Assembly: GCA_030429345.1 (NCBI GenBank)
Contig: JAUIFJ010000008.1
Coordinates: forward strand, 62,001-126,000
DNA length: 64,000 nt
Direction of reading: 5' to 3'
From: a bacterium
Lineage (GTDB): Bacteria; CAIWAD01
In this document: positions 3,661 through 14,053 of the stretch, one piece after another
Position numbering within the stretch: position 1 is the first letter of the stretch
Layout: the number at the start of each line of letters is the position of its first letter
The notes under the pieces: model-generated
Database searches by the model: none
What the model saw: the letters and a program-made list of their open reading frames with translations, nothing else
Told to the model about the DNA's origin: nothing
Translations under genes and position numbers: made by a program

Positions 3661-3735
3661 TCACGGGATAAAAAAGAATTCCAGAATCTGGTCCAGAGTC
3701 TCGATCGCCTGCAGGACGAGGCGGTATGCAGCCAT
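3661..3735 (-). pseudogene. 24-codon remnant, possibly the N-terminus of a ParE-type toxin
   Basis: Immediately after parD, an ATG overlaps the parD stop as TGATG, the coupling usual for antitoxin-toxin pairs. The frame reads MAAYRLVLQAIETLDQILEF and stops after 24 codons. The opening 'AYRL...A...L..I..F' resembles the first helix of ParE/RelE toxins, but the rest is missing and the sequence continues into the leader of the DUF4149 gene. I read it as the stub of a deleted toxin gene. A short spurious frame is possible, so confidence is low. Confidence 0.35.
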
Positions 3736-3992
3736 CAGGTCATTCGGGCGAGGAGCCTGGCCCGCAGTTCTGCAAGGACCTCTTCCCCGTCGCGGGACTG
3801 CCCCGCTTCGGCCTGGTCGATGCCCTTCTGGATCTCACCGTTCAATGAGCGGATGCGGGCTTCAAAAAGAGCTTCTTTCTCGCGCAGTATGCGCAGGCCG
3901 TCGCGCACCACTTCACTGGCGGAGGCATAGTCCCCGGAGGCGACCTTCTCCCTCACGAATTCTTCGAACTCACGACCAATGGAAACATTCAT
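3735..3992 (-). CDS. parD: ParD/CopG-type antitoxin
   Basis: An 85-aa protein beginning MNVSIGREFEEFVREKVASG, followed by YASASEVVRDGLRILREKE. This is the ribbon-helix-helix DNA-binding pattern of type II ParD antitoxins, which repress their own promoter and neutralise ParE. The C-terminal half is a charged helix that would bind the toxin. The start at 3992 is chosen over an upstream ATG at 4220 because residues match the family from here and a promoter/operator lies at 4024-4062, between the two starts. The expected toxin partner is not intact (see 3661-3735), so this is an orphan or a solitary regulator. Confidence 0.8.
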   Translation of the reverse strand: MNVSIGREFEEFVREKVASGDYASASEVVRDGLRILREKEALFEARIRSLNGEIQKGIDQAEAGQSRDGEEVLAELRARLLARMT

Positions 3993-4023
3993 GATTTCAA
4001 TCCTTCGACTCTGTACAGGAAGT

Positions 4024-4062
4024 AGGTTAAACGATTTCCAGATGAATGTCAATAATTGACAT
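4024..4062 (-). promoter_or_regulatory. parD promoter with overlapping palindromic operator
   Basis: On the minus strand TTGACA (complement of 4047-4052) and TAACCT (complement of 4024-4029) are separated by exactly 17 bases, a near-consensus sigma-70 promoter 32 bases upstream of the parD ATG. The -35 box lies inside a perfect palindrome, ATGTCAA-TAA-TTGACAT (4046-4062). This is the position expected for a ribbon-helix-helix antitoxin operator, which suggests autorepression. The binding role is inference; the boxes and symmetry are seen directly. Confidence 0.6.
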
Positions 4063-4138
4063 GTATAACCAAGAAAAGGCTGAAGCAGAACAACAGATGG
4101 ATTCGCCAAGAGCGCTGTCCACGCCTCAAAAAAAGAGC

Positions 4139-4185
4139 AACCCGCCGATTTGAGGATACTCCGTAGAGCATAGCCTTGGCGGGTT
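4139..4185. terminator. possible bidirectional terminator
   Basis: AACCCGCC (4139-4146) pairs with GGCGGGTT (4178-4185) around a 31-base loop. Plus-strand reading runs into TTTTGTT; minus-strand reading runs into a stretch with seven T's. The loop is long for a classic terminator. It lies between the parD promoter and the left island repeat and would insulate parD from transcription leaving the island. Confidence 0.4.
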
Positions 4186-4293
4186 TTGTTGAGGGCAAGA
4201 GTAAGGATCGGGTGGGACATCCCCTACATCAAAATGCACGCACTCGACTCGGACATCCGATGTGTCCAATCCATTAGACACAGGAAAAGCAAA

Positions 4294-4325
4294 CCGGGCC
4301 GCATTCCCCAAGGAACACGGCCCGG
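4294..4325 (-). terminator. Rho-independent terminator in the left repeat
   Basis: CCGGGCCG (4294-4301) pairs perfectly with CGGCCCGG (4318-4325), with some further pairing inside the loop. On the minus strand it is followed by TTTGCTTTTCC. It would end transcripts of the hsdR-S-prrC-hsdM operon. It is the diverged twin of the terminator after the homogentisate dioxygenase gene. Confidence 0.7.
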
Positions 4326-4355
4326 CAATTCAAGCGATGCTGTGTGACAATCCTG

Positions 4356-4418
4356 GAGCCAGGACTGCCCGTAGCTCGTGTCGTCGACCGCCAGGGCCTG
4401 CTTCGTGACCTGGAGCGG
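4356..4418 (-). pseudogene. 3' fragment of a homogentisate dioxygenase gene
   Basis: Read on the minus strand this gives KPLQVTKQALAVDDTSYGQS and then WL, against KPLQITKQALAVDDTSYAQS-WL at the end of the intact gene at 13988-15139. The stop codon TAG of the intact gene is CAG here (4353-4355). Upstream, the frame runs into stop codons within about 15 codons. It is a gene tail without a gene, left on the far side of the island. Confidence 0.75.
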
Positions 4419-4589
4419 TTTCCCCGCCTGAATGCTCTCGATACGCCATCAGGCTTTGTTCTAGAATACTCCGGAATGATCGTGAACTCCCGGTTCCACG
4501 TCGTGGCCGTCCGGGAGAAACTCCAGCGATCACCACAATGTCGCGGCGCTCGTAATCGTCCGATTCCGATCCCCGATCCCTCTTCGGCT

Positions 4590-6239
4590 TCACGGCAAGC
4601 GCTTCAGTCCCAGCTCCTCCAGGAACCCGTTGTGTTTCGTCTTCGCATCGCGGATTCTCTCCTCGATATCGATCATCTCTGCATGCACCTGCCCCAAATC
4701 GACCTCCACTTCCGGCTCGGCGGTGCTGACATAGCGGGAGATGTTCAGGTTGAAGTCGTTGGTCTCGATCTCTTTCATCTCAACGCGCCGAGCGTAGCGC
4801 TCAATCGGCTCCTCCGGACGGTCGCGGTAGGTTGCGATGATCCGCTGGATGTGAGCCTTGCTCAGGAAGTTCTGGCGCTTCCCCTTGTCGAACTCTTTCT
4901 CGGCATTGATGAACAGAACATCATCGCTTCGCTTGCACTTTTTGAGGACGAGAATGCACACCGGGATGCCGGTGGAGTAGAACAGGTTCGCCGGCAGGCC
5001 GATCACCGTGTCAATGTGTCCGTCTTCCAGCAGCTTCCGGCGAATCCTCGATTCGGCCGCGCCGCGGAACAGCACGCCATGCGGCAGAATGATTGCCATG
5101 ACGCCATCATCCTTGAGGTAGTGCAGCCCGTGCAGGAGGAACGCGAAGTCAGCGGCGGACTTGGGAGCAACACCGTGATCCTTGAACCTTGCGTCCTTGC
5201 TTGTCTCCTCCCTGGGTGTCCAGCGGTAGCTGAAGGGCGGGTTGGCTACGACCGCGTCGAACCTGGGGCGGTTCGCCGGATTGGGGTCCGTCAATTGCTC
5301 CCAGTCATTGATGAGCGTGTCGCCGTGGTGGATGTGGAACTCCGAGTCCTTGACGCCGTGCAGCAGCATGTTCATGCGGGCGAGGTTGTAGGTCGTAACA
5401 TTCTTTTCCTGCCCGTAGGTCATGCCGACCGTTCCGCCGCCCGCGATACCAAGCTCCTCATCACCGTGTACCACGAGGCGGCGCACATTCAGCAGCAGCG
5501 ATCCGGAGCCGCACGCGAAGTCGTAGACGGCCTCGAGCTTCTTGCGTGAACCGGTCTCGGGGGCCTGGCTGTCAAGCGACACGATCGCGGACAGGATCGA
5601 GCTGATCGGCTGGGGCGTGTAGAACTCGCCGGCCTTCTTCCCGGACCCGGCGGCGAACTGCCCGATAAGGTACTCGTAGGCGTCGCCGAGCGTGTCGGAG
5701 TCGGTGGAGAACTCCCTCAGCCCCTCAGCAATGCGGGTCACGACGGTGCAGAGCCTTTCGTTCCGCTGGGCGTAGGTCTTGCCGAGCTTCTCGGATGCAA
5801 GGTTGATCTCCGAGAACAGTCCCGCAAAGGTGCTTTGGAAGGACTCGTTCTCGATGTACTTGAAGCCGGCCTGCAGGGTGTTCAGCAGGTCATCGTGTTG
5901 CGTGCGTGCGAGATGGGCGATGTGCGTCCAGAGGTGCTGCGGTTCGATGACATAATGTGTCTTCTTGCGCATCTGCGCCTCGAAGGCCGGAATGTCTCCC
6001 TCGTTCTCGTCGTACCACACAGCCAGCGGCGTGCGCCCGCCGTTGCCGACCGCATCGGGGTCGGGGTAGTCGCGGCCCAACTCCTTTTTGGCCGCTTCCT
6101 CATAGTTGTCGGAGAGATAGCGAAGAAACAGCAAAGCGAGCATGTAGTCGCGAAAGTCGTCCGCGTTCATCGCACCGCGCAGGTCGTCGGCAATGGACCA
6201 GAGGACTTTGCCCAGTCGCTTTTGATCGTCGTTGGTCAT
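4590..6239 (-). CDS. hsdM: type I restriction-modification system, DNA methyltransferase subunit HsdM
   Basis: A 549-aa N6-adenine methyltransferase subunit. The S-adenosylmethionine motif is DFACGSGS (about 240-247) and the catalytic motif is NPPF (about 333-336). The N-terminal helical domain (LWSIADDLRGAMNADDFRDY) and the segment GEFYTPQPISS before motif I are typical of HsdM. It acts in an M2S complex to methylate the target chosen by HsdS, and in R2M2S to allow restriction. It is the last gene of the operon; its ATG overlaps the prrC stop as ATGA, indicating coupled translation. HsdM usually precedes HsdS, so its last position is unusual. Confidence 0.95.
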   Translation of the reverse strand: MTNDDQKRLGKVLWSIADDLRGAMNADDFRDYMLALLFLRYLSDNYEEAAKKELGRDYPDPDAVGNGGRTPLAVWYDENEGDIPAFEAQMRKKTHYVIEPQHLWTHIAHLARTQHDDLLNTLQAGFKYIENESFQSTFAGLFSEINLASEKLGKTYAQRNERLCTVVTRIAEGLREFSTDSDTLGDAYEYLIGQFAAGSGKKAGEFYTPQPISSILSAIVSLDSQAPETGSRKKLEAVYDFACGSGSLLLNVRRLVVHGDEELGIAGGGTVGMTYGQEKNVTTYNLARMNMLLHGVKDSEFHIHHGDTLINDWEQLTDPNPANRPRFDAVVANPPFSYRWTPREETSKDARFKDHGVAPKSAADFAFLLHGLHYLKDDGVMAIILPHGVLFRGAAESRIRRKLLEDGHIDTVIGLPANLFYSTGIPVCILVLKKCKRSDDVLFINAEKEFDKGKRQNFLSKAHIQRIIATYRDRPEEPIERYARRVEMKEIETNDFNLNISRYVSTAEPEVEVDLGQVHAEMIDIEERIRDAKTKHNGFLEELGLKRLP

Positions 6240-7477
6240 GTGGATTCTGCCTCTAGATTGTCATCCGACCCACTCGTTGGGAGTCCCGGGAAGTGTTGCC
6301 GACTGAACGCGTAGTCCCGGATAAATGCGTGAAGCATCGCACGAAAAACACCCTTATTGTCTTCAACCATCTCGGTGGGCTCGTAGAGGGAGTAGCCGCC
6401 ATGGCTGAGTAGATTCAGTAGGCGGGAGTGCAGCACGCCGTCGAAGTCATCCGCATTGCGCTTAATACAATCCGAGAAGCCGTTATACCCAAGGAAACTG
6501 GCCGTCTTCTCCGCAATAACCCGAAGTGAGTTGAAATGGTACGTGTCGAGGTTGCCACTTCGACCTCGTTCGTAGAGCTCTGTGAGGGAGGCGATATGGT
6601 GAAAGAACGGCGTCGCCGCGGTGTTGCGGATCAGGTAGTCGTCCGTCGACAGGTCGCGGCTGAGGAAATACCTGCAAGAATGCTTCTTGAGTTCATTCCA
6701 AAGCACATTGTGAAACAGCGGATGATGTGTCGAAATCACCACGCCAGGCGGAGCAATCGTTCTTTCCCCGCTGGTGTGGCTTTGATGCGCCTGCTTGAGA
6801 ATCATCGCGAGATGCGTCGCCACCTTTACGGCGTTCTGCTCGTCGAGCGAAGAGATAGGGTCGTCAATGTAGATGTGCTTCACCCAGTCGTACGCATCCA
6901 GATCGGGGTCGAGGGCCACTTCAACTATGGCCAGAAAGAAGCACCAGATGAAGATGTTCTCTTCGCCTCGCGAGACCTTGATGTGCTCAATCGTCTCCGA
7001 GCGCTCTGATCCATCATCCTCTTTTACCAGGATTTCGCGGCTGAACGACACACGCCCCTCGTCGAGCATTGGCTTCTCGTCGTCTTTGCCGGGGACTCGA
7101 TACTTCAGGTCTACGTCGATCGCGAAATCGGCGAAGTAGTTCAGGAGGGACTGAACCCGGTTCGCGATCTCGAACTCGCCCAGCCCCGCGAAGAATCTCG
7201 ACCTAGCATTCAGTTCCAGGAAACGGCGCTCATCATTGTCCAGGTCGTTGTCCCATGAGAACAAGTCTTCCGTGAATGCATTGAAGTAGAGCGTGTCACC
7301 CGAAACGACATCGCCTTCTTCGTTGAATTGCTTCCCGAGCCGGTTGAACTCTCGGGAAAGCCGGGTCTTGCCAGTGCCGTTGTACGCATACAGCAGGATG
7401 TAGCGGTGCTGCTGCAGCTCGGTCCTCAAGTGCTCCGCCAGGACAGTGAGATCCCCGAAAGACTGGACCTGCGCCAT
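6236..7477 (-). CDS. prrC: PrrC-type anticodon nuclease (tRNA-Lys cleaving, restriction-linked)
   Basis: A 413-aa protein with an N-terminal ABC-type ATPase domain: Walker A AYNGTGKTRLS (31-41), NAFTEDLFSWDNDL (66-79), signature-like VSRGEEN (168-174), Walker B IYIDDPISSLDE (202-213) and switch STHH (249-252). The C-terminal part contains YHFNSLRVIAEKTASFLGY (313-331) and LLNLLSHGG (353-361). R319, E323 and H359 correspond to the Arg-Glu-His catalytic triad of E. coli PrrC. PrrC is held silent by its type I restriction complex and cleaves tRNA-Lys when phage inhibits restriction. Location directly after hsdS inside an hsd locus is the diagnostic context. It overlaps hsdS by one base (TGATG) and hsdM by four. 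Confidence 0.9.
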   Translation of the reverse strand: MAQVQSFGDLTVLAEHLRTELQQHRYILLYAYNGTGKTRLSREFNRLGKQFNEEGDVVSGDTLYFNAFTEDLFSWDNDLDNDERRFLELNARSRFFAGLGEFEIANRVQSLLNYFADFAIDVDLKYRVPGKDDEKPMLDEGRVSFSREILVKEDDGSERSETIEHIKVSRGEENIFIWCFFLAIVEVALDPDLDAYDWVKHIYIDDPISSLDEQNAVKVATHLAMILKQAHQSHTSGERTIAPPGVVISTHHPLFHNVLWNELKKHSCRYFLSRDLSTDDYLIRNTAATPFFHHIASLTELYERGRSGNLDTYHFNSLRVIAEKTASFLGYNGFSDCIKRNADDFDGVLHSRLLNLLSHGGYSLYEPTEMVEDNKGVFRAMLHAFIRDYAFSRQHFPGLPTSGSDDNLEAEST

Positions 7478-8715
7478 CAGTCACCTCCCTCGGCCGCGTT
7501 TAGCGTTGGGAAGAGCTGCTGCATCAGGCCTCTCTTGTGGACTAGCAGGGCGGTGAGCTTCTCGGCTCTCCCTGCAATTAGGGCGTCAAGCGAAGTAAGA
7601 CAGTCGGCTATGCGGTGTTGCTCCGCTTCAGTCGGCGGAACGGGGACGGGGATCTTCTTAAGACTACCCAGTGTCAGTTTGGGTGGCGCGGCTCCAGTAA
7701 CAAAGCCTCCCACGTCTGTAAGCGTTAGGTACGCAACCAGAAGCTCGTCGACCACGCCGTGCGGATCGAGCACGTGAGCGTGATTGTTGACCCAGTACTG
7801 CCCCTCGGCGATAAATGCCGTTGGCTCAAACGCTTGCCACTTCGCACCATCTTCACCGACAAGGACAAGGCGCTCATTAAAGATGAAGTCGTTGACGTAA
7901 TCAACGATGCCGCTAGCGCCGAAATACGGAAACGGCCCCGGCACTCGGTCCGCGGTTGTAACCGGAACACGCCGGTTGTTGAGAACATGACACAGCTTAT
8001 CGATTGTTTTCGCAGTCCACTCCCCCGCATCCCGAAACTCCGGAAACCGCAACCGCGGCCGCGTTTCACCAGGACGAGGGAACAGCTGCTGCATCAAGCC
8101 AGTCTTGTGCCGGCGGAGTGCCGCCAGCGCTTCCGTCTCGGCCGTGATCCAATCGTCCAGCGAGCCGAGGCACTCCGCGATCTTGCGCTGCTCGGCAGGC
8201 TCGGCTGGCAGCGGAATTTTGATTCCGTAGAAGGTCGACGCATTGATGTTTAGGAGGCCATTACTACGTGCGCTGCTTGTAATGTCGCGGACCAGTTGCC
8301 GGCCATGGGCATTGCTTTCGAACAGGTTGAGGAAGTATCTCGGATCGTACTCGTCATCGAGCCTGAAGCAGAAGAATGCGTTGGACGCTGCTGCTTCGTC
8401 GAACTCGTGGAGTTGATACACGCACCCTTGAGGAAAACGCTTCGAATTGCCGCGGTTGTAGGCAAAGTCTCCTCGCCGTAGGTAAATGTACTTGGAGTAC
8501 TGGTCGCCGGAAATATCGCGGCCGAACTTCTTGTCCTGTGCGACGAAGCCCTTCCCGGCGGTGATGCTTACCGGTGTTAACTCGGCCTCCCCGACCTTTT
8601 CGGAAATGCGTTCGCAACACTCGTCGAGCGTCTTAGTGTGCCAATAACTCGTCTCCCGAAACTCCGGAAACCGCAGGCGCGGCGTGGGCGTTGTTGGCTT
8701 GTCGTCCTTGCTCAT
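7477..8715 (-). CDS. hsdS: type I restriction-modification system, specificity subunit HsdS
   Basis: A 412-aa protein with two target-recognition domains, each in the same frame of conserved repeats. PRLRFPEFR occurs near residues 12 and 220. Each domain ends in a helical spacer, QRKIAECLGSLDDWI...LMQQLFP and QHRIADCLTSLDALI...LMQQLFP. The internal twofold repeat is the hallmark of full-length HsdS, which recognises a bipartite DNA target and holds HsdM and HsdR. The recognition sequence cannot be deduced. The ATG lies 25 bases after the hsdR stop. Confidence 0.93.
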   Translation of the reverse strand: MSKDDKPTTPTPRLRFPEFRETSYWHTKTLDECCERISEKVGEAELTPVSITAGKGFVAQDKKFGRDISGDQYSKYIYLRRGDFAYNRGNSKRFPQGCVYQLHEFDEAAASNAFFCFRLDDEYDPRYFLNLFESNAHGRQLVRDITSSARSNGLLNINASTFYGIKIPLPAEPAEQRKIAECLGSLDDWITAETEALAALRRHKTGLMQQLFPRPGETRPRLRFPEFRDAGEWTAKTIDKLCHVLNNRRVPVTTADRVPGPFPYFGASGIVDYVNDFIFNERLVLVGEDGAKWQAFEPTAFIAEGQYWVNNHAHVLDPHGVVDELLVAYLTLTDVGGFVTGAAPPKLTLGSLKKIPVPVPPTEAEQHRIADCLTSLDALIAGRAEKLTALLVHKRGLMQQLFPTLNAAEGGD

Positions 8716-8740
8716 CGACTAATCTTCCTCGCCATCCCGT

Positions 8741-11700
8741 TCACTGCTCCCACGCTGCCAGTCCGTTGATCTGACGGCCAGCGGTGCGCTGCTTGAGCAG
8801 CGGGATCAGGCCCGTCATCAGCTCCTGCTCTTTGCGTTGGCGGTCCTTCCAACCCAGTCCGAGCGGCGCGAGGAGGTCGGTGAGTTTTTCGCCGTCGAAG
8901 ATCATGCGGTCTAGCACTTCGTCCGTGAAGGCGGCGAGGGCTTCGGTCGCCAACCCGTGCGCAGCGGCGAGATCGTGCAAGGCCTGCTGCTGCTTCTGGG
9001 CCTTGAAACGGGCGTAGCCGTCCTCGACTTCTTGCACGCTGAGGCCCTTGCCGGCTTCGAGGCTTCGGACATACGCCGCGATGTCGTCCTTCTCGTCGAG
9101 GAACTTGGCGTCGGACTGAATGAGGGCAATGAGCTCCTCGCGGGTCATCCTGGATGTGGTCGACTTGCCCGTTGCCGGTGTCGCCTGGCTCATCTCGCTG
9201 ATGAGCGTCATGATGTAGTCGTAGTCGATCGTGGCCGAGGCGAAGAGAACCAGCTCGAAGTCTAGGTCGTCCACAGTCGGATCGGGCTCGTCGCCGGCCA
9301 TTGACTGGTCACGGAGCTGCCTGGCCGTTTCGAGATAGGCTCCCCGGTATCCTCGGAGTTCGTTCTTGGGCAGCGTGGCCTCGATCTCCTGCTTCTGCTC
9401 ATCGGAGAGGTCCGTGTACTGGTCGAGCTGGACCTGCAGGCGCTGGACTTCCTTGAACTGCTGCACGAAGCCGGCGCGGGCGGCGTCACCCTTGAGGTTG
9501 GCAATGCTGCTGGGCGCGGAGGGGAGCCCCTGGCCTTCGAGAAAGGCGTCGAGGTCGGCCTTGGCTGCCTTGAGCTTCTCGATGACGACCGGTGCCGGAT
9601 CGACCAGCCAGATCCTGCGGGACTCCTCGGCGCCCTCGCCGGTGGCATCGAGGCCGGAGAACATCCGGACGGCTTCGTTCACATTGTCCTGCTGGCCCCG
9701 GAAGTCGAGGATCTGGCCGTGGGGCTTGGTGTCGTTGAGGACGCGGTTGGTGCGGCTGAAGGCCTGGATCAGACCGTGGTGCTTGAGCTTCTTGTCGACA
9801 TACAGGGTATTGAGGTACTTGCTGTCGAAGCCAGTGAGGAGCATCTCGACGACGATGACAAGATCAAGCTTCCCGCCGCCAGGCACTCCGTCCTTGCCGG
9901 GTATGTCGGCATCGGGAAACTTGTGGTTCTTGATGCGTTCCTGGACATCGCCGTAATAGGCGTCGAACTCGGCGACGGTGTGGTTCGTGCCGTACCGAGC
10001 ATTGTAGTCCGCCATGATGCGCGTGAGGGCGGCCATCTTCTCGTCAGGCTGCTGCTGGTTGTCGGCCAGCTCCTGGGGGAGGTCCTCCTGAAGCTGACGC
10101 ACATCGGCGTTGCCCTCTGCGGGCGGAGAGAAGACAGCTCCGATCTTGAGGGGCTTGAAGTCCGGATCTTCGGCTTGTCGTACGACCTGGACTTCTGCGA
10201 ATAGGTCGTAGTACGCGATCGCGTCGTTGATGCTTGCAGTGGCGAAGAGAGCGTTGAAGCGGCGGCTGTTCGTGGCGGCGTCGTGCTTGTCGAGGATGTT
10301 CTCGACAATCGCTCGCTTGACCGCATCGGGATCTGCCTTGCGGGCATCCTCGCCACCGAGTTGGAAGTAGTCGACATTGAACTTGAGCACATTCCGGTCT
10401 TCGATGGCGTCCGTGATGGTGTATTGGTGCAGGGGCTGTTGGAAAATGTCGGCGGTAGTCATCAAGGTCTGGATGTCGCCGTCAACCTTCTTGACCGTGG
10501 CGTTCTCATCAAAAATGGGCGTTCCGGTAAATCCGAAGAACTGGGCATTGGGGAAGAACTCCTTGATCGTCTTGTGTGTGTCCCCAAACTGAGACCGATG
10601 GCACTCGTCGAAAATGATGGCCATGCGCTTGTCGCGGAGTGGCGCGAGCAGGTTGGAATAGGTGTCCTGGCCGCGGTCGGCGCGCTGCTTGTTGCGCTTG
10701 CTCTGCTCGTCAAGGGCCAGGCCGAGCTTCTGAATCGTGGTGACGATGACCTTGTCCGCGTAGTTGTCGCTGAGCAGGCGGCGGACGAGCGCGGCGGTAT
10801 TCGTGTTCTCTTCAACGCAGCCTGCCTGGAACCGGTTGAACTCGTCGCGCGTCTGGCGGTCGAGGTCTTTGCGGTCGACGACGAAGAGGCATTTATGAAT
10901 GTCGTCGTTGGACTTGAGCAGAGTCGAGGCCTTGAAGCTCGTGAGGGTTTTGCCGCTGCCGGTCGTGTGCCAGATGTAGCCGTTCCCGGTGTTGTCCTTG
11001 ATGCAGTCGACAATCTGCTGGACGGCATAGATCTGGTACGGACGCATCATGAGCAGCTGCTTCTCGCCGGCGACGAGAACCGTGTAGCGGCTGATCATCC
11101 GGCCAAGCGTGCACTTGGCGAGGAAGGTTTCAGCAAAGTCGTCGAGATGGCTGATCTTCTTGTTCTTCGAGTCCGCGAACTCGTATACAGGTAGAAAGCG
11201 CTCGTCGGCGTTGAATGCAAAGTGCTTGTTGTTGTTGTTGGTGAAGTAATAGGTGCGGTCCCGGTTGCTGACCACGAAGAGCTGGACGAAGCAGAGCAGC
11301 GTGTTGGTGTAGCCGTTTCCGGGGTCGGACTTGTAGTCGACGATCTGCTGCATTGCCTTTCGGGGAGAGATGCCAAGAGTCTTCAACTCGACCTGCACCG
11401 TTGGTACACCGTTGATCAGAATGATGACATCGTAGCGGTGACAGCTATTGTCTGTATTGATGCGAAGCTGGTTGACGACTTCGAAGGAATTCTTGCACCA
11501 GTCCCTGGTGTTGACAAGTGTGTAGTTCAGAGGCGTACCGTCGTCACGAATCAGACTATTGCGTTCGCGAAGGCATCGTGAAGCAGTGAAGACATCTGGA
11601 GTCACAATCTCATCGAGCAAACGACTGAACTCGCCATCCGTTAACCGGACACGATTCAGGCTTTCGAATTTGGCGCGGAAGTTTTCTTCCAGGGTCTTGC

Positions 11701-11836
11701 GATCGCGAATGTCGTCGCGGTACTTGTATTTGAGACCTTGAAGCTTCCCGATAAAACCATACTCAATCTGGCTTTCCCGGAGCACCTTGGAATCGGTCTT
11801 CAGATCCGGAAAGCGCGTTTGTTTGGATTTGGTCAT
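8741..11836 (-). CDS. hsdR: type I restriction-modification system, endonuclease/translocase subunit HsdR
   Basis: A 1031-aa protein, the usual size for HsdR. The N-terminal nuclease domain has D136 and VPTVQVELK with E150 and K152, a PD-(D/E)xK site. The SF2 motor follows: Walker A TTGSGKT (291-297), DECH box in IIFDECHRSQ (410-413) and motif III GFTGTP (about 435-440). A long helical C-terminus would contact the methyltransferase core. HsdR translocates unmethylated DNA and cuts at a distance. It is the first gene of the operon; its leader (11837 onward) has only a weak ribosome site. Confidence 0.95.
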   Translation of the reverse strand: MTKSKQTRFPDLKTDSKVLRESQIEYGFIGKLQGLKYKYRDDIRDRKTLEENFRAKFESLNRVRLTDGEFSRLLDEIVTPDVFTASRCLRERNSLIRDDGTPLNYTLVNTRDWCKNSFEVVNQLRINTDNSCHRYDVIILINGVPTVQVELKTLGISPRKAMQQIVDYKSDPGNGYTNTLLCFVQLFVVSNRDRTYYFTNNNNKHFAFNADERFLPVYEFADSKNKKISHLDDFAETFLAKCTLGRMISRYTVLVAGEKQLLMMRPYQIYAVQQIVDCIKDNTGNGYIWHTTGSGKTLTSFKASTLLKSNDDIHKCLFVVDRKDLDRQTRDEFNRFQAGCVEENTNTAALVRRLLSDNYADKVIVTTIQKLGLALDEQSKRNKQRADRGQDTYSNLLAPLRDKRMAIIFDECHRSQFGDTHKTIKEFFPNAQFFGFTGTPIFDENATVKKVDGDIQTLMTTADIFQQPLHQYTITDAIEDRNVLKFNVDYFQLGGEDARKADPDAVKRAIVENILDKHDAATNSRRFNALFATASINDAIAYYDLFAEVQVVRQAEDPDFKPLKIGAVFSPPAEGNADVRQLQEDLPQELADNQQQPDEKMAALTRIMADYNARYGTNHTVAEFDAYYGDVQERIKNHKFPDADIPGKDGVPGGGKLDLVIVVEMLLTGFDSKYLNTLYVDKKLKHHGLIQAFSRTNRVLNDTKPHGQILDFRGQQDNVNEAVRMFSGLDATGEGAEESRRIWLVDPAPVVIEKLKAAKADLDAFLEGQGLPSAPSSIANLKGDAARAGFVQQFKEVQRLQVQLDQYTDLSDEQKQEIEATLPKNELRGYRGAYLETARQLRDQSMAGDEPDPTVDDLDFELVLFASATIDYDYIMTLISEMSQATPATGKSTTSRMTREELIALIQSDAKFLDEKDDIAAYVRSLEAGKGLSVQEVEDGYARFKAQKQQQALHDLAAAHGLATEALAAFTDEVLDRMIFDGEKLTDLLAPLGLGWKDRQRKEQELMTGLIPLLKQRTAGRQINGLAAWEQ

Positions 11837-12403
11837 ATGTTCATACGTGGTTTACCTTGGCGGCGAAGTACACCTTAGACCTGCCAATAGTGAAAGAAGT
11901 AGTCGATTCTTATAGACACTTTCTCAGTACCCGCTTGATGAGTAGATTCTTCACACAGGATGAGATTGTCTCTTGTTACACAAATCATCGATTCGCACTG
12001 ATCCATCGACCACTTCTTCAGCGAATTTCGAATCTAAGGACATAGGCTGCGTTCGGCAAGCGGAACTGAGCTAAAGCCGAAAAGTTGGGCCTGGTTGGCG
12101 CGCCAAAGGTCTGAATAGGTCCCTTTTGCACGGAGGGCCCCAAGAATCCCTTCAGACCCGTTGCATTTCTTCGCATATGATTGGATGTCATCTTCGGGTC
12201 CAGATCGTCTTCACATTAACCTCGTAAAACATAGTCCGGACCGCATCCCGGTGGAGCACGGCCAGCCGCTTACATGCAGTCCGGATAATCCAGACCTGTG
12301 CGGCAGCCGTGCTACGAATGTCCTGAGGCCAGACAGCGTGCGATTTGCCTGTGTCGACGGGGGAGGATTCGGAAAGGGTCGGATTCAGCGAGCCCGGCCA
12401 GAT
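11837..12403. other. intergenic region between hsdR and the AAA ATPase gene
   Basis: About 570 bases, visibly more AT-rich than the rest of the window, with no convincing coding frame. The hsdR promoter is expected here; a TATAAG box (complement of 11909-11914) lies about 73 bases upstream of the hsdR ATG, but I see no good -35 partner. A stretch at about 12237-12262 loosely resembles the terminator in the island repeats and could be a decayed copy that ends the ATPase transcript. Nothing else recognised. Confidence 0.5.
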
Positions 12404-13672
12404 TCAGGGTTCCCAGAGTCTGGAGATGGGTACGGCAAGAATGCCTGTCTCACGAACGAGGGGCAGCGTGGCTTCGCCGTCGTACAAGACGATGCCGGCC
12501 TGGAAGGCCTCACCGGCAATACCCGCCAGTTTCAGAAGTCCACGGGCATCGCCCCGGTTGACACTTGCGGCCGCTTTGATTTCGACCCCCCAGATCTTCT
12601 GCCCTGACTCGATGACGATGTCGACTTCTGTTTGATCACGATCCCGGTAATGGAAGAAGCGTGGCGGTCTGGGCAGGCAATCGGCCATCGAGATCAGTTG
12701 CTGGAGGACGAAGGACTCAAGCAAGTGCCCGAAGCGTGGCCTTTCCCGAAGCCAGCTCCCGGCCTCCAGTTCGCCAAGGGTGGCGGCCAGCCCGCTGTCG
12801 ACGAAGTGGAGTTTGGGGGTTTTGACTAGCCGTTTGCTGCGATTACTGTGCCATGCCGGAAGCTGGCGGACGAGAAAAAGACGCTCCAACAAGGCCAAAT
12901 AACGATCAATGGTCGCCCGTGAGTGACCGAGCGCCTTGGAGAGGGCGCTCAGGTTCAGGAGCTGGGCTGTACGAGTCTCGAGGAGCGCCAGCAGCCGGCT
13001 CAGGTCGCTGGCGTCCTTGATTTTCGCGATATCCCCGATGTCCCGCTCGACGACGGATCGCAGATAGTTTCGGCGCCAGCGATCTGCGCGCTCTGGATCA
13101 CGCTGGATGGATTCCGGATAACCGCCCGCCACAAGCAGCCCGGGCAACTCCGATGGCTTCGGTGTCCCGGAGGCCCTGATCTTCGGTCCAAGATCTCCCG
13201 CCAGGAGTTTCTCCAGAAACTTCCCCGGTGTGCGGCGGATTTCGGCTTCGGTGAAGGGATGCAACCAGAGGCATTCCATCCGGCCGGCCAGGGAATCCGC
13301 AAGCCGGGGAAGCTGCAGCAGATTGGCCGACCCGGTGAGCAGGAAACGCCCCGGCTTGCGCCTGGCATCCACACTGCGCTTGATCGCCAGTGTCAGTTCG
13401 GGCGCACGCTGCACCTCATCAATGGCCACCTGTTCCGGCAGTTCGTCGACAAAGCCCTGCGGGTCCGCGATGGCCAGATCCCGTAGTGCGCTGTCATCCA
13501 GGCTCAGGTAGTGCCGTTGGGGTTCGCACTGCCGGGCCAGGGTGGACTTGCCGCATTGTCGGGGTCCCAGCAGGCAGACCACGGGAGTATCGGCCAAAGC
13601 CGCCTTAAGGACTGCACCCAGATGGCGCGGCAGATAGCCCTGCTCGGGAAGAGTGGGTATAGACTTCGGCAA
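12404..13672 (-). CDS. AAA-family ATPase with DUF4143 domain
   Basis: A 422-aa protein. The N-terminal AAA domain has Walker A GPRQCGKST (36-44), Walker B VAIDEVQRAP (82-91) and a sensor segment FLLTGSANLL (about 109-118). A winged-helix-like middle (LSALSKALGHSRATIDRYL) is followed by the DUF4143 part with a PD-(D/E)xK-like core, TEVDIVIESGQKIWGVEIK, near residue 350. These proteins are common in genomic islands and their biochemical role is not established. It lies inside the island, on the same strand as the hsd genes but 567 bases upstream of them, so it is probably an independent unit. Confidence 0.85.
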   Translation of the reverse strand: MPKSIPTLPEQGYLPRHLGAVLKAALADTPVVCLLGPRQCGKSTLARQCEPQRHYLSLDDSALRDLAIADPQGFVDELPEQVAIDEVQRAPELTLAIKRSVDARRKPGRFLLTGSANLLQLPRLADSLAGRMECLWLHPFTEAEIRRTPGKFLEKLLAGDLGPKIRASGTPKPSELPGLLVAGGYPESIQRDPERADRWRRNYLRSVVERDIGDIAKIKDASDLSRLLALLETRTAQLLNLSALSKALGHSRATIDRYLALLERLFLVRQLPAWHSNRSKRLVKTPKLHFVDSGLAATLGELEAGSWLRERPRFGHLLESFVLQQLISMADCLPRPPRFFHYRDRDQTEVDIVIESGQKIWGVEIKAAASVNRGDARGLLKLAGIAGEAFQAGIVLYDGEATLPLVRETGILAVPISRLWEP

Positions 13673-13772
13673 TTTGCTACCTCATGGTCCGGCGAATAGC
13701 CACCTGGAAAGATGGCATTTTGCTACTTTGCAATGCGGCAGATTGACATCTGAACCACTGGCCAATTGTAAC

Positions 13773-13991
13773 ATGTCCTCATCAAAAGGTACAATCCCCA
13801 AAAGGGGCCGGACTACAGAAGCACTTCCCGAGTCTCCACCCGAAGCCAGACGGGAGCTGGTGATCAAGAGCATCGAATCAGAGCTTGCCGTGCTCAGACG
13901 AGATGCAGGATCGAACCCTAAAACAAACCGGGCCGCATTCCCCAAGGGAACCCGGCCCGGCCATTCAAGCGATGCTGTGAGACAATCCTAG
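13773..13991 (+). CDS. doubtful 72-aa open frame running into the right island repeat
   Basis: This frame begins MSSSKGTIPKRGRTTEALPE and continues with a helix-like, charged stretch (ARRELVIKSIESELAVLRRD). Its last third is encoded by the terminator hairpin and the 3' end of the convergent dioxygenase gene, which cannot be its original C-terminus. No ribosome site is apparent. Either it is spurious or it is the 5' part of a gene cut at the island edge. Otherwise the stretch 13673-13924 holds no recognised feature. Confidence 0.2.
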   Translation: MSSSKGTIPKRGRTTEALPESPPEARRELVIKSIESELAVLRRDAGSNPKTNRAAFPKGTRPGHSSDAVRQS

Positions 13992-14053
13992 AGCCAGGAC
14001 TGCGCGTAACTCGTGTCGTCGACAGCCAGGGCCTGCTTCGTGATCTGAAGCGG
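13925..14053. repeat. right direct repeat (about 129 bp) bounding the restriction island
   Basis: The partner of 4291-4418, in the same orientation. It contains the intact 3' end of the homogentisate dioxygenase gene (stop at 13988-13990) and its terminator. The two copies lie about 9.6 kb apart. No integrase or transposase gene lies between them. Confidence 0.85.
13928..13960 (-). terminator. Rho-independent terminator of the homogentisate dioxygenase operon
   Basis: CCGGGCCG (13928-13935) pairs with CGGCCCGG (13953-13960), and inner bases GGGTTCCC and GGGGAA extend the stem. Minus-strand reading continues into GGTTTGTTT. It lies 27 bases after the dioxygenase stop codon. Confidence 0.8.

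What the first reader, a model, noticed from the sequence alone, without database searches (positions are those of the whole stretch)
6236..7477. PrrC anticodon nuclease inside a type I restriction locus
The ATPase motifs and the R319-E323-H359 triad with KTASFLGY match PrrC, which cleaves tRNA-Lys when phage disables restriction. Start and stop codons overlap hsdS and hsdM, so dosage is tied to the complex that silences it. It is a two-layer phage defence in a lineage where such systems are little studied.
Basis: partly seen in the sequence, partly recalled or inferred. Interest (0 to 1): 0.7.

Follow-up and report, generated by a model that had tools for sequence, protein, structure and literature searches.

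The report
PrrC anticodon nuclease in restriction operon
This is an intact type I restriction operon carrying a PrrC-type toxin gene that probably cuts lysine tRNA when a phage disables restriction; it is a further member of a known defence family, and a Klebsiella system with the same gene order has already been shown to do this.

Summary
Window 6236-7477 (-) encodes a 413-aa protein that matches the PADLOC PrrC profile nearly end to end (E=2e-118) and aligns with E. coli PrrC at 33% identity. Walker A, signature, Walker B and H-loop motifs are present. The catalytic triad R319-E323-H359 is invariant in the 88 homologues aligned, and KTASFLGY is identical to E. coli PrrC 325-332. The gene sits between hsdS and hsdM, overlapping them by 1 and 4 bases.

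Gene order is hsdR-hsdS-prrC-hsdM, not the classical hsdM-hsdS-prrC-hsdR. The protein belongs to a large separate PrrC clade with this order, found under 14 phylum labels. That arrangement has been tested: PrrC170 of Klebsiella quasipneumoniae (HsdR, HsdS, PrrC, HsdM; PMC11555353) targets tRNA-Lys and restricts phages T1 and T7. Klebsiella plasmid proteins of this clade are 51-53% identical to the window protein.

Family membership is secure. tRNA-Lys specificity and Hsd silencing are inferred. One caution: Asp287, which contacts the wobble base in E. coli PrrC, is Ala288 here. The cassette looks horizontally acquired (GC 55-61% against mostly 64-72%; no PrrC in the four nearest genomes held). 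New member of a known kind; low interest.

The parts
6236..7477 (-). prrC: Rad50-like ABC ATPase domain (about residues 1-265) plus C-terminal anticodon-nuclease domain (about 290-390), triad R319-E323-H359
   Evidence: PADLOC PrrC E=2e-118; alignment to E. coli PrrC and 80+ homologues; AlphaFold model, pLDDT 85
6398..6529 (-). codons from triad residue R319 to just past H359 (HEPN-type R352-x6-H359 pair included)
   Evidence: invariant columns
6593..6625 (-). codons 285-295, equivalent of the E. coli tRNA-Lys recognition peptide 284-294 (KYGDSNKSFSY); here NTAATPFFHHI, with Asp287 replaced by Ala288
   Evidence: role of the E. coli peptide and Asp287 from PMC3014915
7477..8715 (-). hsdS, specificity subunit; stop codon shares one base with the prrC start
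   Evidence: Methylase_S E=4e-27
4590..6239 (-). hsdM, methyltransferase subunit; ATG overlaps the prrC stop (ATGA)
   Evidence: N6_Mtase E=1e-103, HsdM_N; NPPF motif
8741..11836 (-). hsdR, restriction/translocase subunit with EcoR124-type C-terminal domain
   Evidence: HSDR_N, EcoR124_C E=2e-62; PADLOC REase_I 1066 bits

Best explanation
An intact hsdR-hsdS-prrC-hsdM operon. The Hsd proteins form a type I (IC-like) restriction-modification enzyme that cuts unmodified phage DNA. PrrC is made in coupled translation with HsdS and HsdM and is held latent in that complex. When a phage protein or DNA damage disables the restriction enzyme, the ABC domain hydrolyses NTP and releases the C-terminal nuclease. 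The nuclease cuts tRNA in the anticodon loop, most likely tRNA-Lys(UUU), and stops translation so that the phage cannot multiply. Shown here: the gene, its family, the catalytic residues, the operon layout and the intact Hsd motifs. Inferred from E. coli PrrC and PrrC170: nuclease activity, tRNA-Lys as target, and silencing and release by the Hsd complex.
For: PrrC profile match 394 bits over residues 6-395. 33% identity to E. coli PrrC over 387 residues; the reference protein L002 carries KYGDSNKSFSY at 284-294 and R320/E324/H356, so it is the classical protein. The triad, Walker and signature residues are invariant or almost so in 88 homologues. Same operon order in 78 of 90 rows, with conserved short overlaps. 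[quoted passage not shown] coli PrrC, arrests growth, targets tRNA-Lys and restricts T1 and T7 (PMC11555353); Klebsiella plasmid members of the window clade fit that description (51-53% identity to the window, 32-34% to E. coli PrrC). The host has tRNA-Lys(UUU) with loop CTTTTAA and the s2U34 and mnm5 enzymes MnmA and MnmE.
Against: Ala288 stands where E. coli PrrC has Asp287, the wobble-base contact; in this clade only 42 of 84 keep Asp, so the substrate or its required modification may differ. The C-domain is only 25% identical to E. coli PrrC and 46% to the Klebsiella protein. Gene order differs from prrABCD. The structure search gave no significant match for the C-domain alone. The sequence of PrrC170 itself could not be fetched, so its place in this clade is inferred from gene order, host and identity.
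Confidence: 0.85

Rival explanations
1. A PrrC-family nuclease with a different tRNA target (or a differently modified tRNA-Lys): same regulation, changed recognition peptide.
For: The recognition peptide region is NTAATPFFHHI instead of KYGDSNKSFSY; Asp287 is replaced by Ala, and the position is variable across the clade. In E. coli PrrC, Asp287 substitutions change the response to wobble-base modification (PMC3014915).
Against: A system with this gene order and similar identity to E. coli PrrC targets tRNA-Lys (PMC11555353). The invariant F/H of the peptide and the helix around the triad (14 of 21 residues 312-332 identical to E. coli PrrC) are kept.
Confidence: 0.12
2. A RloC-type anticodon nuclease that senses DNA damage on its own.
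For: Shared ABC motifs and R-x3-E...H triad (PMC2610378).
Against: 413 aa, with no CxxC zinc hook or long coiled-coil insert; strong PrrC profile match; sits in an hsd operon, which is rare for RloC.
Confidence: 0.01
3. An ABC ATPase without nuclease activity that serves the restriction complex.
For: Pfam recognises only AAA_13, and annotators call homologues 'AAA family ATPase'.
Against: The triad is invariant in 88 proteins, and a system of the same layout (PrrC170) has a toxic, tRNA-targeting PrrC.
Confidence: 0.02

Closest known systems
PrrC170 system, Klebsiella quasipneumoniae (PMC11555353)
   Same: Same four genes in the order HsdR, HsdS, PrrC, HsdM; identity to E. coli PrrC about 35%, against 33% for the window protein; Klebsiella homologues are 51-53% identical to the window PrrC, HsdM 70%.
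   Different: The Klebsiella loci fetched here carry two extra genes between hsdR and hsdS. The window protein has insertions (413 against 371 aa) and Ala in place of Asp at the Asp287 position.
E. coli EcoprrI-PrrC (prrABCD; locus L002)
   Same: ABC-ATPase plus ACNase domains, triad in the same columns, KTASFLGY identical, embedded in a type I hsd operon.
   Different: Order hsdM-hsdS-prrC-hsdR; 33% identity; recognition peptide KYGDSNKSFSY with Asp287; the two lie on opposite sides of a fully supported deep branch.
RloC
   Same: Shared triad pattern and ABC motifs.
   Different: RloC has a zinc-hook/coiled-coil insert and is seldom linked to hsd genes; neither holds here.

Membership tests
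PrrC anticodon nuclease | full-length match to the PrrC profile | tested here: met
   PDLC02360, 394 bits, residues 6-395; the classical E. coli protein scores 490 bits against the same profile
PrrC anticodon nuclease | ABC-ATPase motifs (Walker A, signature, Walker B/D-loop, H-loop) | tested here: met
   NGTGKT, SRGEE, YIDDPISSLD, STHH; columns conserved; model matches Rad50 heads, E=2e-5
PrrC anticodon nuclease | catalytic triad R-x3-E...H in the C-domain | tested here: met
   R319-E323-H359, same columns as E. coli R320-E324-H356
PrrC anticodon nuclease | linkage to a type I (IC) hsd operon | tested here: met
   hsdR, hsdS and hsdM adjacent on the same strand; EcoR124_C domain in HsdR
PrrC anticodon nuclease | no zinc-hook insert (separates it from RloC) | tested here: met
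   413 aa, no CxxC in the translation
PrrC anticodon nuclease | tRNA-Lys anticodon cleavage | not testable with these tools
   needs an assay; the host tRNA-Lys(UUU) loop CTTTTAA is present
PrrC anticodon nuclease | silencing by the linked Hsd complex | not testable with these tools
   only operon coupling seen
EcoprrI-type locus (prrABCD) | gene order hsdM-hsdS-prrC-hsdR | tested here: not met
   order is hsdR-hsdS-prrC-hsdM
EcoprrI-type locus (prrABCD) | tRNA-Lys recognition peptide with Asp287 | tested here: not met
   NTAATPFFHHI, Ala288; the peptide is conserved in only a subset of PrrC proteins (PMC3014915)
HEPN superfamily | Rx4-6H motif in a helical domain | tested here: met
   R352-x6-H359; modelled domain all-helical
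HEPN superfamily | structural similarity to solved HEPN folds | tested here: inconclusive
   no significant match for the C-domain model
RloC | zinc-hook/coiled-coil insert in the ATPase domain | tested here: not met
   413 aa, no CxxC

The most novel reading that the evidence does not exclude
The R-S-C-M clade of PrrC, or at least the members that have lost the wobble-contact Asp such as this one, recognises a differently modified tRNA-Lys or another tRNA, as an escape from phage tRNA repair or from phage-encoded decoy tRNAs.
Probability: 0.12. Interest if true: 0.45.

Novelty: new member of a known kind. Interest (0 to 1): 0.2.

Why it matters
It adds one more distant host to a widely spread class of two-layer defence operons (restriction plus tRNA cleavage on failure). 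The comparison shows that the R-S-C-M arrangement, not the textbook E. coli prrABCD, is common, and that its tRNA-recognition peptide is not the E. coli one. That makes the specificity of this clade a clear, testable question.

Tried and rejected
RloC and non-nuclease ATPase readings were rejected (see rivals). PDB sequence searches gave no relevant relative. Whole-chain fold search gave only Rad50-like ABC heads and weak ATPase hits in the viral library. The C-domain alone gave nothing significant in PDB; a weak AbiV hit at E=3.2 is not evidence. Pfam has no model for the C-domain. Naming the host by 16S against plasmid records failed. Several papers on PrrC biochemistry are not held. The sequence of PrrC170 could not be obtained; gene order, host and identity were used instead.

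Full report
Observation. The ORF at 6236-7477 (-) is real, starts with ATG and encodes 413 aa. The four genes hsdR (8741-11836), hsdS (7477-8715), prrC (6236-7477) and hsdM (4590-6239) lie on one strand. hsdS and prrC share one base, and prrC and hsdM share four. HsdM, HsdS and HsdR match their families strongly and keep their motifs (HsdM FACGSG and NPPF; HsdR VELK, GSGKT, DECH), so the restriction enzyme looks intact.

Family. PADLOC's PrrC profile matches residues 6-395 with E=2e-118, far above any other model; Pfam sees only AAA_13. To have a secure reference I fetched an E. coli plasmid locus annotated 'anticodon nuclease' in the order M-S-C-R (L002). Its 396-aa product has KYGDSNKSFSY at 284-294, Asp287, R320, E324 and H356, which fits the numbering published for E. 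coli PrrC (PMC3014915). The window protein is 33% identical to it over 387 residues, with R319/E323/H359 in the triad columns and KTASFLGY identical. All three triad residues, the HEPN-type R352, and D205/D206/E172/H251 of the ATPase domain are invariant in 88 sequences, and the Walker lysine in 87.

Clade and gene order. A scan of genomes returned 572 relatives, of which the best 80 were kept. In 78 of 90 rows checked, the neighbours of prrC are hsdS upstream and hsdM downstream; hsdR lies further upstream where the contig allows. Most S-C and C-M junctions are 4-base overlaps or a few bases apart. All four classical-type loci read M-S-C-R. In the tree the two sets are separated by a fully supported long branch. 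Because the 80 loci were chosen by similarity to the window, the counts describe this clade, not PrrC as a whole. Rows of the clade carry 14 phylum labels, many from metagenome bins. The nearest row is an Acidobacteriota bin at 63% identity, and the window row has a long branch.

Known relative. PrrC170 from K. quasipneumoniae was cloned as HsdR, HsdS, PrrC and HsdM. It has 35% identity to E. coli PrrC, arrests growth, targets tRNA-Lys by tRNA sequencing, restricts T1 and T7, and is overcome by phage tRNA-Lys (PMC11555353). Klebsiella plasmid loci of the window clade have this order and are 51-53% identical to the window PrrC and 32-34% identical to E. coli PrrC; HsdM is 70% identical and HsdR of the same clade (Pseudomonas plasmid) 64%. 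That PrrC170 is in this clade is inferred, since its sequence was not at hand.

Structure. The AlphaFold model (51 sequences, mean pLDDT 85) shows an ABC head and a C-terminal helical domain, with R319 and E323 on one helix (313-329) and R352 and H359 on another (348-359). The head matches Rad50. The C-domain alone is all-helical but has no significant match in PDB, so the HEPN assignment rests on the sequence motif and on the literature (PMC3710099).

Specificity. In the segment that aligns with the E. coli recognition peptide the window reads NTAATPFFHHI; Asp287, which is thought to contact the modified wobble base, is Ala288. Only 42 of 84 clade members have Asp there. So tRNA-Lys is the likeliest substrate by analogy with PrrC170, but it is not demonstrated by the sequence. 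The host has tRNA-Lys(UUU) with loop CTTTTAA and tRNA-Lys(CUU), plus MnmA and MnmE, so a target of the E. coli kind exists.

Origin. GC over 4-14 kb is 55-61%, against mostly 64-72% in the rest of the window. Of 98 genomes searched only the window's own has a full-length PrrC; the four nearest (three of the family, one of the class) have none. Horizontal gain is likely. The genome has two other distinct HsdR loci.

Verdict. The system is an ordinary, well-formed member of a known defence family in a known arrangement.

Noticed in passing
window 3735-4220 (-): ParD-type antitoxin (PF03693) with no ParE-like ORF noticed beside it; may be an orphan.
   Followed up: partly
window 12404-13672 (-): AAA_14/DUF4143 ATPase just upstream of hsdR, inside the low-GC stretch.
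   Followed up: partly
window 4001-14000: GC dip to 55-61% against mostly 64-72% elsewhere: probable acquired island.
   Followed up: partly
L014, L016, L017, L041, L044, L062, L070, L076, L088: RhuM-like gene inserted between hsdS and prrC or between prrC and hsdM in many related operons (Pfam RhuM confirmed for L014).
   Followed up: partly
L003, L032, L033, L048, L053, L139: Pair of genes between hsdR and hsdS: TrlF-type PHP/AAA ATPase and Schlafen AlbA_2 protein.
   Followed up: partly
L088 5199-6272 and 7911-9098: Two PrrC genes in one locus, the first a divergent 357-aa paralogue that matches the PrrC profile.
   Followed up: partly
L020, L022, L058, L085: About 1080-aa DEAD-type helicase gene between hsdS and prrC (Pfam confirmed for L020).
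   Followed up: no
L002 10462-10968: A gene annotated 3'-phosphatase lies just beyond hsdR of the E. coli plasmid prr locus; could relate to tRNA end healing.
   Followed up: no
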